This document shows, piece by piece, positions 7,755 through 10,456 of a stretch of 64,000 nucleotides of DNA (position 1 is the stretch's first letter; every line of letters starts with the position of its first letter). Made by a program: the position numbers and the translations under genes. The stretch covers positions 124,001-188,000 of the forward strand of contig PAKZ01000044.1 in NCBI GenBank assembly GCA_002706335.1, in the 5' to 3' direction. The stretch comes from Ahrensia sp. (GTDB taxonomy: Bacteria; Pseudomonadota; Alphaproteobacteria; Rhizobiales; Rhizobiaceae). The notes below the pieces were generated by a model that saw only the letters and a list, made by a program, of their open reading frames with translations, did not search any database and was not told the origin of the DNA.

Positions 7755-8363
7755 TCAGCCAAAGCGTCGGCGAAGCAAATAGTCGAACGACAGCTTGCCC
7801 GGCCCGTTGACGACGATTATCAGCAGAACGAAAATCCAGAGCAAGCGCTGATCGAAAATAATGGCGTCGGGGAAGCGGTCGAACATGGCGCCGAGATATT
7901 TCCCCGTGACCTCGAAATACATGACGTCCACATAGCTCTGGACGACCACGAAGACGATCATGCCAATCGCGGCGATCCGGCTGAACAAGCCGATCACCAC
8001 AAGGATCGGCAACACCAGTTCGCCGAGCGTTCCGACGATGACGATCAGGTCCCAGGGAAAAAAGGGCACGTTTTCGACCGAGTTTCCATAGCTGTCGAAG
8101 ACCGGCGGTATGATCGAGGCATAGGCCCCGATGGAAGGATGAAGGAAGCCCAGCGACCCGTCACCCAGCTTGTTCGTGGCGGAATTCAGATAATAGACAA
8201 GCAGTACGCTGGCGAAGGCAAAGCGGGCCGCAAAGCCGTTGAACCATCCGGCAAGCGCCGCCTCGATCGTTGAAAAGACCTCGCGATGGAGGCGGACAAG
8301 AGACCCGACCGGCCCTGACATCTCGTTTGCGAAATCGTGTTTCATATCTGCAGTGTCGGCCAT
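7755..8363 (-). CDS. bufD: DoxX-family membrane protein of the bufferin operon (BufD)
   Basis: Integral inner-membrane protein of 202 residues in the DoxX family. Four hydrophobic segments are visible: the region of FAFASVLLVYYLNSATNKLGD, then DLIVIVGTLGELVLPILVVIGL, IAAIGMIVFVVVQSYVDVM and LLWIFVLLIIVVNGPG. The GELVLPILVVIGLFSR and NGPGKLSFDYLLRRR blocks are family hallmarks. DoxX proteins accompany MNIO-type RiPP clusters, where a redox role such as disulphide formation is suspected but unproven. It is the last gene, 18 bases after bufC. Confidence 0.85.
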   Translation of the reverse strand: MADTADMKHDFANEMSGPVGSLVRLHREVFSTIEAALAGWFNGFAARFAFASVLLVYYLNSATNKLGDGSLGFLHPSIGAYASIIPPVFDSYGNSVENVPFFPWDLIVIVGTLGELVLPILVVIGLFSRIAAIGMIVFVVVQSYVDVMYFEVTGKYLGAMFDRFPDAIIFDQRLLWIFVLLIIVVNGPGKLSFDYLLRRRFG

Positions 8364-8381
8364 CGCGGTCCCCCCGTCGTT

Positions 8382-9164
8382 TTAGTTAGCCGCCTGCGCG
8401 GCGATAAACGCGCCGGTGGACAGAATGCCGCCGATCGCGTCGTTGATGTCGAATGTGCCGGCGGCTTCCATTCCCGCCTGTGCCGCTTCGCCGAGCGTCC
8501 CGCCAGAGAGAAGCGTTTCGAAGAAGGCTTCATGGCCGTCCGGCAGCGCGATGACGGTCACCTCCGTGCCGGGCCGGGTGACGAGAACGTTCTGCGGCCG
8601 AGAGGCGTCGATCTTCCCGACAGGGTCGCTGGTGCGGTTGGCGTCGAAAATGTCGAAGGCGGCATAGGACGAGCGCACCAGCGCGGTCGCCGGATGCGTT
8701 GTGAATGTGGCATCGCCCAAATGCTCGGGATCTATCGCCGCGAGCGCTTGCGGGGCGAGCGGTTCCAGATCGGCGGCGTGATAGGCCGTCAGCCAGGCCC
8801 GCTCCACGCGCGCGACATCGGCCAGATAGGGCATGCGCGCGGCGTGTTCGAACGTCTCGATGAAGGTCGGGAATTCGTGGCCATAAAGGAACAACAGCGG
8901 CGACGACGGCGGATGGGCGCGGACGAATTCACGCGCCATGTCACGAAACAATGTCGGGCCTGCGATACGCCCTACCGCCGGGAAAATGTCAACCAGCGCT
9001 TCGATCAGGCTGACGGTGACATTGTTGCGATAAACGTTGAAGCGCTTCACCGCCTGTTTGCCGCGCGGCCCTGCGACGGTTGGCGGATTGGCGCGCGACG
9101 GATCGAGGATCGCGGCGCGGATACTGACGGCGTCGAGATCCTGTGTGTCAGGAGCCGACGGCAT
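8382..9164 (-). CDS. bufC: HvfC/BufC-type partner protein of a MNIO RiPP enzyme (DUF2063)
   Basis: A 260-residue protein of the DUF2063 family, previously labelled 'putative DNA-binding' and now seen as the partner that presents the precursor peptide to the MNIO enzyme. The N-terminal helical domain has the family block RFNVYRNNVTVSLIEALVD followed by FPAVGRIAG and FRDMAREFVRAHPP. YLADVARVERAW marks the end of that domain. The C-terminal half, about 150-260, is the mixed alpha/beta part with FFETLLSGGTLGEAA. Its start overlaps the end of bufB by 17 bases, which points to translational coupling. Confidence 0.88.
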   Translation of the reverse strand: MPSAPDTQDLDAVSIRAAILDPSRANPPTVAGPRGKQAVKRFNVYRNNVTVSLIEALVDIFPAVGRIAGPTLFRDMAREFVRAHPPSSPLLFLYGHEFPTFIETFEHAARMPYLADVARVERAWLTAYHAADLEPLAPQALAAIDPEHLGDATFTTHPATALVRSSYAAFDIFDANRTSDPVGKIDASRPQNVLVTRPGTEVTVIALPDGHEAFFETLLSGGTLGEAAQAGMEAAGTFDINDAIGGILSTGAFIAAQAAN

Positions 9165-10110
9165 GACCGGTTCTCCCGTGGCTCTTGCCCATCATGAAAG
9201 AATGCGCGGCCTCGTCGAGGATACGGTCGGCTGCTGCTGCTTCCGAGCGCAGGACCGGCCAGTCGGGCAGGTCGGAATCCCATTCGATCAGGGTCGGGAT
9301 CGGTCCCGCCTGTTTTACGACGATGGCGTAGAGATCCCAGACCGCGTTGGCGACGGGGGCGTCGTGACTGTCGATCAGCAGCGGCTCGCCCTCGTCGTCT
9401 TCCTGGACCGAATGACCCGCGAGGTGGATCTCGCCGACATGCTCCATCGGATAGTCCATCAGGTAGGACATCGGCGAGTAGCCGTGATTGGTGGCCGAAA
9501 CGAAGACATTGTTGACGTCGAGCAGCAGGCCGCAGCCGGTGCGGCACACGATTTCGCGGATGAAATCGGTCTCACTCATCGTCGAGTTCTCGAAAACGAC
9601 ATAGGTCGACGGGTTTTCGAGCAGCATCTGCCGGCCGATGACGTCCTGCATGCGGTCGATATGCTCGCAGACATGGTCGAGCGTCGCCTCGGTGTAAGGC
9701 AACGGCAGGAGGTCGTTCATGAAGACCTCGTCATGGGTCGACCATGCCAAGTGCTCGGATATGAGCGCAGGTTCGTAGCGGTCCACAAGCGACTTGAAGC
9801 GCGACAGGTGGTCGGCGCTCAGCGGCTGCGGCCCGCCGATCGACATGCAGACGCCGTGCAGGGAGAGGGGGAAATCTTGGCGAACGCGCTCCAGCGCGCG
9901 ATGGGGAAACCCGCCGTCGCCCATGTAGTTCTCGGCGTGGACTTCAAGAAAGCCCACCGGATCGCGATCGGCGAGGATCGCGTCCAGGTGCGTATGCTTG
10001 AATCCGACCCCGGCCGAAGCCGGGATGCGGGCAGTGCGCGCTGCAAAACGGGACGGTGCCGGTGTGGCCGGAGCCGCTTGCGGGGGATGCGAAAGAACGG
10101 TCCTGCCCAT
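9148..10110 (-). CDS. bufB: MNIO-family (DUF692) peptide-modifying iron enzyme
   Basis: Multinuclear non-haem iron-dependent oxidative enzyme, predicted to oxidise cysteines of the BufA precursor. The TIM-barrel motifs that supply metal ligands are all present in order: LEVHAENYMGDGG, SLHGVCMSIGG, LISEHLAWS, MLLENPSTYV, LLLDVNNVFVSATNHG, EIHLAGHS, LIDSHDAPV and LIEWDSDLP. About 320 residues from the ATG at 10110; an in-frame ATG at 10134 would add eight residues and neither has a strong ribosome-binding site. It follows the precursor gene by 37 bases (or 13 from 10134). In characterised bufferin systems the product converts Cys side chains to heterocycles that bind copper. Confidence 0.92.
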   Translation of the reverse strand: MGRTVLSHPPQAAPATPAPSRFAARTARIPASAGVGFKHTHLDAILADRDPVGFLEVHAENYMGDGGFPHRALERVRQDFPLSLHGVCMSIGGPQPLSADHLSRFKSLVDRYEPALISEHLAWSTHDEVFMNDLLPLPYTEATLDHVCEHIDRMQDVIGRQMLLENPSTYVVFENSTMSETDFIREIVCRTGCGLLLDVNNVFVSATNHGYSPMSYLMDYPMEHVGEIHLAGHSVQEDDEGEPLLIDSHDAPVANAVWDLYAIVVKQAGPIPTLIEWDSDLPDWPVLRSEAAAADRILDEAAHSFMMGKSHGRTGHAVGS

Positions 10111-10147
10111 GGCGTTGTTTCCGTTTTGCAGCATTTGTGGAATGCGA

Positions 10148-10456
10148 TCAGGCCGGCATGTCGCGCTCGAGCGGCTCAAGCGAGCCCATACGGCCGCCGG
10201 GAAGTTCCATCGACGTGCAGGTGCCTTCCTCGACATATTTCCAGGAGTTGCCCTGATAATCGACTTTCGAGGTGCCCTGGCAGGTCGTGCCCGGGCCAGC
10301 GGCGCAATCGTTCTGACCGGCCATGGCGACGCCGTAGCATTTAACGTTGGCGGCGGCCGCGTCGGTCGCGGTGACGAGCTGGGCGCCGGAAATGGCGGCG
10401 GCGACAGCGCCGGCGAGAACGGCACCGCTGAAGACAGTCTTGGTTGCTTTGGACAT
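10148..10456 (-). CDS. bufA: bufferin-type RiPP precursor (DUF2282)
   Basis: A 102-residue precursor with a long N-terminal signal (MSKATKTVFSGAVLAGAVAA, then a run ending ATDAAAA near residue 37), so the product goes to the periplasm. The core begins NVKCYGVAMAGQNDC and has exactly four Cys at 40, 51, 59 and 80, plus the DUF2282 blocks KCYGVAMAGQNDCAAG and SWKYVEEGTC. In described bufferins two Cys become thiooxazole-type rings and two form a disulphide, giving a copper-binding peptide. The start at 10456 is fixed by AGGAGTTATCT just upstream; the ATG at 10564 lacks a leader match. First gene of bufABCD. Confidence 0.9.
   Translation of the reverse strand: MSKATKTVFSGAVLAGAVAAAISGAQLVTATDAAAANVKCYGVAMAGQNDCAAGPGTTCQGTSKVDYQGNSWKYVEEGTCTSMELPGGRMGSLEPLERDMPA

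What the first reader, a model, noticed from the sequence alone, without database searches (positions are those of the whole stretch)
7755..10456. Four-gene bufferin-type RiPP operon (bufABCD) between hsp20 and threonine aldolase
A precursor with a signal peptide and exactly four core cysteines (40, 51, 59, 80), a complete MNIO-family (DUF692) enzyme, a HvfC/BufC partner and a DoxX protein lie in one operon with coupled translation. Recent work on such clusters shows Cys-to-heterocycle conversion and a copper-binding, protective peptide. Most annotations would list these four as DUF2282, DUF692, DUF2063 and DoxX, hiding the system. Here no sigma/anti-sigma pair is linked, and the neighbours are heat-shock and amino-acid genes, so control must be from elsewhere.
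Basis: partly seen in the sequence, partly recalled or inferred. Interest (0 to 1): 0.85.

Follow-up and report, generated by a model that had tools for sequence, protein, structure and literature searches.

The report
Copper-peptide operon with shared switch
An Oricola-like bacterium carries a four-gene operon predicted to make a small exported peptide that would soak up excess copper; the sigma-factor pair linked to many such operons is not found here, and one conserved DNA signal in front of it also stands before many cytochrome c-prime genes of related bacteria, which points to a likely shared, still unidentified regulator.

Summary
In detail: four minus-strand genes (bufA 10456-10148, bufB 10110-9148, bufC 9164-8382, bufD 8363-7755) match DUF2282, MNIO, DUF2063 and DoxX. 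BufB passes NCBI's bufferin-maturase cut-off; a BufC model resembles the MNIO partners TglI and NGO1945. As a protein system it is an ordinary Buf1 bufferin operon, and NCBI already names close homologues BufA1. Chemistry and copper binding are inferred.

The control region is the new part. No NrsF match in the genome. The operon sits between ltaE and hsp20, as in 18 of 80 relatives; 12 of 18 genomes without DUF2282 have ltaE and hsp20 side by side without buf. Operons at this site lack the SigF promoter and carry TTGATTTCC-N2-KTKA, found 18 times in 20 genomes, 15 of them at bufA. Upstream lies a dyad, TCAC-N6-GTGA: 90 of 111 bufA upstream regions, 2 of 90 control genes, both promoter classes, and 15 of 21 readable cytochrome c' genes. 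Most bufA leaders hold a predicted hairpin (73 of 97; shuffles 14.5). The dyad's regulator is unknown.

The parts
10148..10456 (-). bufA, Buf1-type (DUF2282) bufferin precursor, 102 aa, Cys 40/51/59/80
9148..10110 (-). bufB, MNIO bufferin maturase, 320 aa
8382..9164 (-). bufC, DUF2063 partner protein, 260 aa, overlaps bufB by 17 nt
7755..8363 (-). bufD, DoxX-family membrane protein, 202 aa
   Evidence: 29.6 bits, cut-off 23.6
10462..10469 (-). ribosome-binding site AGAGGAGT of bufA
   Evidence: sequence
10480..10502 (-). predicted leader hairpin GCCGGG-N11-CCCGGC
10529..10543 (-). conserved promoter block TTGATTTCC-TA-TTTA
10550..10555 (-). conserved GATAAC between dyad and promoter block
10561..10574 (.). 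dyad TCACACGGAAGTGA (TCAC-N6-GTGA), predicted regulator site
10603..11634 (-). ltaE-like gene, upstream border of the site (neighbour)
7150..7620 (+). hsp20 gene, converging, downstream border of the site (neighbour)
7707..7730 (+). perfect 10-bp inverted repeat followed by a T run, terminator-like, between hsp20 and bufD

Best explanation
This operon encodes a Buf1-type bufferin precursor with four cysteines, its MNIO maturase, a DUF2063 partner and a DoxX protein; it is predicted to make a thiooxazole-bearing periplasmic peptide that would sequester excess copper, and it is likely switched on not by SigF but through a conserved upstream dyad and a TTGATTTCC promoter element. Steps: (1) a stress signal acts on an unidentified DNA-binding regulator at the dyad TCAC-N6-GTGA (inferred; the dyad itself is shown). 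(2) RNA polymerase starts downstream of the TTGATTTCC block and the transcript begins with a hairpin that likely protects the mRNA (predicted). (3) BufC is predicted to hold BufA while BufB oxidises Cys51 and Cys59 to thiooxazoles; Cys40 and Cys80 would form a disulphide after Sec export (by analogy with published Buf1, PMC12452194). (4) The mature peptide would bind copper in the periplasm; the role of BufD is unknown.
For: Families over cut-off; BufB bufferin-maturase equivalog 389.6 bits against a cut-off of 310; candidate ligand residues invariant in 74 BufB rows and aligned with MbnB/TglH; BufC model matches TglI and NGO1945; close homologues named BufA1 by NCBI. No NrsF match in the genome; GTAAC-N15-17-CGAA in 0 of 31 ltaE-type leaders and 63 of 81 others; TTGATTTCC exact in 16 of 20 loci at this site, 15 of 18 genome-wide occurrences of its 15-mer at bufA; dyad in 90 of 111 bufA upstream regions, 2 of 90 control genes, 10 of 343 random windows; leader hairpin in 73 of 97 against 14.5 in shuffles.
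Against: No direct evidence for modification, metal binding, transcription start or regulator. No consistent -10 box could be assigned to a known sigma factor. The window's own leader is not significant alone (z -1.10). The hairpin is weaker phylum-wide (13 of 27 against 5.05, maximum 11 of 60 shuffles), and one Caulobacter bufA has its transcription start at -7, so no leader (PMC3511200). The dyad is absent from 8 of 8 beta-proteobacterial loci checked. A SigF-type bufA fusion in S. meliloti did not answer to H2O2, cadmium or chromate (PMC6180224 section 9; copper is not among the agents listed there).
Confidence: 0.75

Rival explanations
1. The peptide is a bufferin-type metallophore, but its main job in this lineage is another stress (gold, mercury, oxidative or chlorine stress), with copper binding secondary.
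For: Bufferin operons are also known as gold-induced genes and occur fused to MerC (PMC12452194); the dyad also stands before cytochrome c' genes and, in two genomes, an rpoH-like gene, which suggests a broader stress. SigF regulons answer to chromate and cadmium as well (PMC8224329 passages).
Against: In Caulobacter the same gene set is induced by copper and a sigF mutant is copper-sensitive (PMC8224329 passages); Buf1 binds Cu(I) and Cu(II) (PMC12452194).
Confidence: 0.2
2. The conserved upstream signals are only shared descent of a short, slowly changing region; bufA is expressed at low level from a plain promoter or by read-through from ltaE.
For: The TTGATTTCC rows include close relatives and identical pairs; ltaE lies upstream in the same direction, 146 nt away.
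Against: The dyad recurs in two promoter classes and before an unrelated gene family, is rare before control genes and in random windows; the block is invariant where its flanks are not; two loci with enzymes of the other lineage keep the block.
Confidence: 0.15
3. The leader hairpin works as a translation switch: its 5' flank (CTCCTC) pairs with the ribosome site AGAGGAG until a signal opens it.
For: MFE folds of the window and several relatives show this pairing; SD paired in 46 of 112 bufA leaders against 17-28 in shuffled versions and 17 of 96 control leaders.
Against: Within the ltaE-type group own pairing is barely better than cross pairing (15.0 against 13.9); in SigF-type loci part of the pairing stretch lies inside the promoter spacer and would not be transcribed (read sequences).
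Confidence: 0.15
4. The operon is a decaying remnant without function.
For: A second tandem bufA present in two Oricola relatives (L003, L006) is missing here.
Against: All four frames are open, BufB keeps the residues invariant in 74 rows, and the promoter blocks are intact.
Confidence: 0.03

Closest known systems
Buf1 bufferin operons (Caulobacter CC3254-CC3257; landscape paper PMC12452194)
   Same: Precursor family, four Cys, MNIO, DUF2063 partner, DoxX, gene order A-B-C-D.
   Different: No linked SigF/NrsF and no SigF promoter; TTGATTTCC-type promoter at a fixed ltaE-hsp20 site. The landscape paper reports Buf1 clusters with sigma and NrsF genes among other arrangements, so lack of the pair is not in itself new.
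S. meliloti RpoE7 (ECF16) operon SMb20530-SMb20527
   Same: Related DUF692/DUF2063 operon; SigF-type promoter; SigF-type loci fetched here carry the same dyad.
   Different: Divergent rpoE7-ecfR7 pair controls it (PMC6180224).
Captophorins / oxazolin and fontiphorin (HvfABC, FonABC; PMC13097082)
   Same: MNIO plus DUF2063/RRE partner making 5-thiooxazoles, copper-related (passages).
   Different: EGKCG-repeat precursors; BufB is below the HvfB cut-off (244.4 against 360).
TglHI and MbnBC
   Same: Enzyme family by sequence; partner fold like TglI.
   Different: Different substrates and products; low sequence similarity; BufB below the MbnB cut-off.
ECF26 promoters of Rhizobiaceae
   Same: The window genome's cytochrome c' promoter resembles those listed in PMC6180224.
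   Different: bufA itself has no such promoter; the dyad is the shared part.

Membership tests
Buf1 bufferin gene cluster | DUF2282 precursor with four conserved Cys | tested here: met
   PF10048 84.0 bits, cut-off 22.4; Cys 40, 51, 59, 80
Buf1 bufferin gene cluster | Sec signal peptide on the precursor | tested here: inconclusive
   Lys-containing N-terminus and hydrophobic stretch ending before Ala-Ala-Ala-Asn are visible; no predictor was run
Buf1 bufferin gene cluster | Bufferin-type MNIO maturase | tested here: met
   NF050167 MNIO_BufB 389.6 bits, cut-off 310
Buf1 bufferin gene cluster | Metal-ligand residues of MNIO enzymes | tested here: met
   H85, H120, E165, D198, N201, H229, D247, H249, E276 invariant in 74 rows and in stretches aligned with MbnB/TglH; ligand roles are recalled
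Buf1 bufferin gene cluster | DUF2063 partner with RRE-type domain | tested here: met
   PF09836 78.8 bits; model pLDDT 89.5, PDB matches 8hi7_A, 8hci_A, 3dee; the RRE part was not aligned separately
Buf1 bufferin gene cluster | DoxX gene in the operon | tested here: met
   PF07681 29.6 bits, cut-off 23.6
Buf1 bufferin gene cluster | Cys-derived thiooxazoles and copper binding | not testable with these tools
   needs mass spectrometry and metal assays
SigF (ECF16) regulon | GTAACC-N16-CGAA promoter upstream of bufA | tested here: not met
   regex GTAAC-N15-17-CGAA absent in the window and in 31 of 31 ltaE-type leaders
SigF (ECF16) regulon | NrsF anti-sigma gene linked or in the genome | tested here: not met
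   PF06532: 0 matches at E 0.1 in the genome, which is 99.46% complete; none at 20 site loci
Oxazolin/HvfABC | HvfB-type MNIO | tested here: not met
   244.4 bits, cut-off 360
Buf2 bufferins | BufA2 precursor | tested here: not met
   27.2 bits, cut-off 60
Known RNA families (Rfam) | match over gathering score in the leader | tested here: not met
   window 10100-10900: three matches, all below gathering score and none in the leader

The most novel reading that the evidence does not exclude
Alphaproteobacteria have an undescribed stress regulon, marked by the dyad TCACG-N4-CGTGA about 25 nt upstream of ECF-type promoters, that joins bufferin operons to cytochrome c' (and possibly rpoH and thioredoxin). 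In the window's lineage the bufferin operon has dropped SigF/NrsF and is run by this dyad with a new TTGATTTCC promoter and a hairpin at the 5' end of the mRNA.
Probability: 0.5. Interest if true: 0.72.

Novelty: new variant of a known kind. Interest (0 to 1): 0.5.

Why it matters
Bufferins are a recently recognised and common class of copper-handling peptides whose control is described, in the papers seen here, through SigF/NrsF. A dyad found in both SigF-type and SigF-free operons and at cytochrome c' genes gives a concrete bait for the missing regulator, and might explain why a SigF-type bufA fusion in Sinorhizobium stayed silent under stresses that work in Caulobacter. A fixed site that also occurs empty makes gain and loss of a metal-protection system easy to follow.

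Tried and rejected
SigF control: rejected for this lineage. The genome does hold ECF-type sigma genes (16 Sigma70_r4_2 matches), and four of those loci give weak hits to a SigF query (24-29% identity); none was linked to the operon. EcfG-type GGAAC-N16-CGTT, FNR, CueR/MerR-type and RpoH boxes were compared with the bufA promoter by eye from recalled consensus sequences; none fitted, no formal test. Ribosome-site switch: weak, not claimed. Rfam: nothing in the leader. Adjacent regulator: none seen by eye in the frame lists of eight loci of another alphaproteobacterial family, one of which (L273) has SigF/NrsF. Literature: six dyad strings gave 0 papers; two searches for bufferin with SigF/promoter or leader terms gave nothing on bufferin promoters or leaders in their listings; all cover open-licence PMC only.

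Rows dropped or doubled: the 31 anchored rows contain identical pairs (L070/L136, L124/L138) and close relatives, and L069 was left out for lack of a match; removes identical rows and leaves out loci without the block. The 30 loci are the best-scoring DUF2282 matches, not a random draw, and L128 has the same upstream sequence as L070. The BufB tree holds 17 of 21 site-linked rows; L033, L055, L059 and L082 did not enter it. In one search, 9 of 30 cytochrome c' loci could not be called; the query gene was itself found through the dyad, so without it the count is 14 of 20. In one search only 8 of 15 cytochrome c' promoters matched a loose GGAAT-type -35 pattern, 6 of them 23-26 nt from the dyad start. 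In one search, 2 of 29 loci could not be called. In one search one bufA-linked hit (L147) was labelled 'other' by a strict text rule; its position is about 180 nt from the DUF2282 match, so it is counted at bufA. The alignment had one wrong stretch (L144) and was not used.
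Full report
WHAT IS THERE. The window belongs to an Oricola-like genome: BufB is 80-90% identical to four Oricola loci, L003-L006. Four genes lie head to tail on the minus strand: bufA 10456-10148, bufB 10110-9148, bufC 9164-8382, bufD 8363-7755. They match DUF2282, MbnB_TglH_ChrH, DUF2063 and DoxX over Pfam's cut-offs. BufB passes NCBI's bufferin-maturase equivalog cut-off and stays below those of HvfB, ApyH, MbnB and ChrH. One MNIO and one DUF2282 match were found in the genome, these two.

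IS IT A BUFFERIN OPERON? BufA has Cys at 40, 51, 59 and 80 only, in the core kept by its homologues. In 74 aligned BufB rows, H85, H120, E165, D198, N201, H229, D247, H249 and E276 are invariant and lie in stretches aligned with MbnB or TglH; their role as iron ligands is recalled. A model of BufC (25 rows, mean pLDDT 89.5) has three PDB matches with E below 0.001: TglI twice and NGO1945 (8hi7_A, 8hci_A, 3dee), which PMC12452194 treats as MNIO partner proteins. In PMC12452194 (introduction, bufferin, partner and discussion sections read) the two central Cys of Buf1 are the modified ones, thiooxazoles chelate Cu(I) and Cu(II), and the outer Cys form a disulphide. Applied here this is inference from membership. 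NCBI already calls close homologues BufA1. As a protein system this is a new member of a known kind.

WHERE IT SITS. Of 80 loci fetched by BufB similarity, 18 show ltaE, bufA, bufB, bufC and a converging hsp20, and two more (L004, L015) show hsp20 without ltaE. In 23 genomes searched with LtaE (18 without a DUF2282 match and five with one), hsp20 lies within about 0.65 kb of ltaE with no buf hit in 15: 12 of the 18 and 3 of the 5; one of the five (G014, L159) has buf at ltaE. So this is a fixed site that also occurs empty. On the BufB tree (74 rows; 17 of 21 site-linked rows present, window included) the site-linked rows need two changes: a group of 15 with the window, and L015 with L018 among the SigF-type rows. 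Those two keep the site's TTGATTTCC element with enzymes of the other lineage, which suggests that the promoter goes with the site.

CONTROL WITHOUT SIGF. No NrsF match at E 0.1 in the genome. With one SigF and one NrsF query, none of the 20 site loci has a hit, while 27 of the other 60 have one or both. GTAAC-N15-17-CGAA occurs in 0 of 31 ltaE-type leaders and 63 of 81 others. Instead, exact TTGATTTCC stands upstream of bufA in 16 of the 20 site loci, with altered forms in L033, L054, L059 and L069. Among the 30 best-scoring DUF2282 loci of a family-wide search, 7 have ltaE and all 7 have TTGATTTCC (one search missed one through a wrong start); in the other 23 the best match is 10 of 16 letters. 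TTGATTTCCNNKTKA occurs 18 times in 20 chosen genomes, 15 times at bufA, and 0 times for the reversed pattern. In 31 stretches anchored on the block, T at +23 is kept in 26, A at +29 in 31, T at -10 in 29 and C at -7 in 26. If TTGATT is a -35 element, T+23 is where a -10 box would start; no sigma factor could be assigned.

THE DYAD. TCAC-N6-GTGA with at most one mismatch lies upstream of the block in 23 of 27 TTGATTTCC-type promoters (shuffles mean 1.2, maximum 5 of 100), starting 31 nt before it in 17 and 42 nt before it in 4 occurrences. In SigF-type promoters it occurs in 55 of 63 (shuffles mean 1.2, maximum 4), 25 or 26 nt before GTAAC in 46 occurrences, mostly as TCACG-N4-CGTGA. Controls: 90 of 111 bufA upstream regions against 2 of 90 other genes of the same loci and 10 of 343 random windows; without mismatch 42, 1 and 1. 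Outside the family it is found before 10 of 27 bufA genes, and in none of 8 beta-proteobacterial loci. The strict form occurs at 39 places in 10 genomes against 13 for the reversed pattern. I read 20 of the 39: 4 lie before cytochrome c' genes, 2 before rpoH-like genes, others before a YHS protein, rpsU, a Lactamase_B_3 protein and, by eye, a thioredoxin; 14 of the 20 fell inside a frame of 80 codons or more by a crude caller. Pfam supports cytochrome c' (two tested), YHS, S21, Lactamase_B_3 and the sigma-70 domains of one rpoH-like gene. A search with the window genome's cytochrome c' gave 30 loci; 21 could be read, and 15 carry the dyad within 150 nt of the start, 12 of them without mismatch; shuffles give 0.75 on average and 4 at most. 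Without the query gene, itself found through the dyad, it is 14 of 20. In the window's genome GGGAATAA begins 23 nt from the first base of that dyad and GTGTCT follows, like ECF26 promoters listed for S. meliloti in PMC6180224 (passages); 6 of 15 rows show such a box at 23-26 nt. Six dyad strings occur in no paper of the held library. A shared regulator is likely but unidentified.

THE LEADER. Between promoter and ribosome site most bufA genes have a short hairpin whose sequence changes while pairing stays. Of 97 leaders less than 70% alike, 73 have a stem score of 15 or more; 40 shuffles give 14.5 on average and 21 at most; leaders of 94 other genes give 20 against 17.7. In SigF-type loci the stem starts 9 nt after CGAA in 22 of 54. 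With a start mapped 6 nt after the -10 box in Bradyrhizobium ecfF (PMC3420878, passages) and a start at -61 in Caulobacter CC3254 (PMC3511200 section 7) the hairpin would lie near the 5' end of the mRNA. I take it as a likely stabilising hairpin. Weak points: the window's own leader is not significant alone (z -1.10), the phylum-wide sample is weaker (13 of 27 against 5.05, maximum 11), and Caulobacter CC2907 starts at -7.

VERDICT. Observation confirmed, interpretation supported. The peptide system is ordinary Buf1. The SigF-free promoter class at a fixed site, the dyad shared with cytochrome c' and the leader hairpin are, as far as my searches go (and passages of the papers named), undescribed. 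Shown: genes, positions, counts and controls. Inferred: peptide chemistry, copper binding, promoter start, regulator, hairpin function.

Noticed in passing
L003 5190 and 5637; L006 5192 and 5600: Two Oricola relatives have two bufA genes in tandem; the second (60-63% identical to the window's) has the longer N-terminal part seen in SigF-type BufA. The window has only the first kind.
   Followed up: partly
L226 1528 and L243 (own genome, G000:C37:86027): The bufA dyad also stands upstream of a cytochrome c' gene, followed by an ECF26-like promoter; 15 of 21 readable cytochrome c' loci have it.
   Followed up: yes
L235 1481; L242 1548: The strict dyad lies 121-140 nt upstream of an rpoH-like sigma gene in two genomes.
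   Followed up: partly
L152-L173: In 15 of 23 genomes searched, ltaE and hsp20 face each other with no bufferin operon between them: the empty form of the site.
   Followed up: yes
L015, L018: BufB of the SigF-type lineage sits at the hsp20 site with the TTGATTTCC promoter: apparent enzyme replacement under a kept promoter.
   Followed up: partly
L273-L280: In another alphaproteobacterial family, 7 of 8 bufABCD loci lack SigF/NrsF hits; in at least four of them the gene upstream looks, by eye, like threonyl-tRNA synthetase. All 6 loci of this family checked carry dyad-like sites.
   Followed up: partly
window 10525-10462 (-): CTCCTC after the promoter block can pair with the ribosome site AGAGGAG in the window and several relatives; not conserved enough to claim a switch.
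   Followed up: partly
window 10603-11634: The threonine-aldolase-like gene is below NCBIfam's cut-offs for both aldolase models it hits; its exact substrate is open.
   Followed up: no
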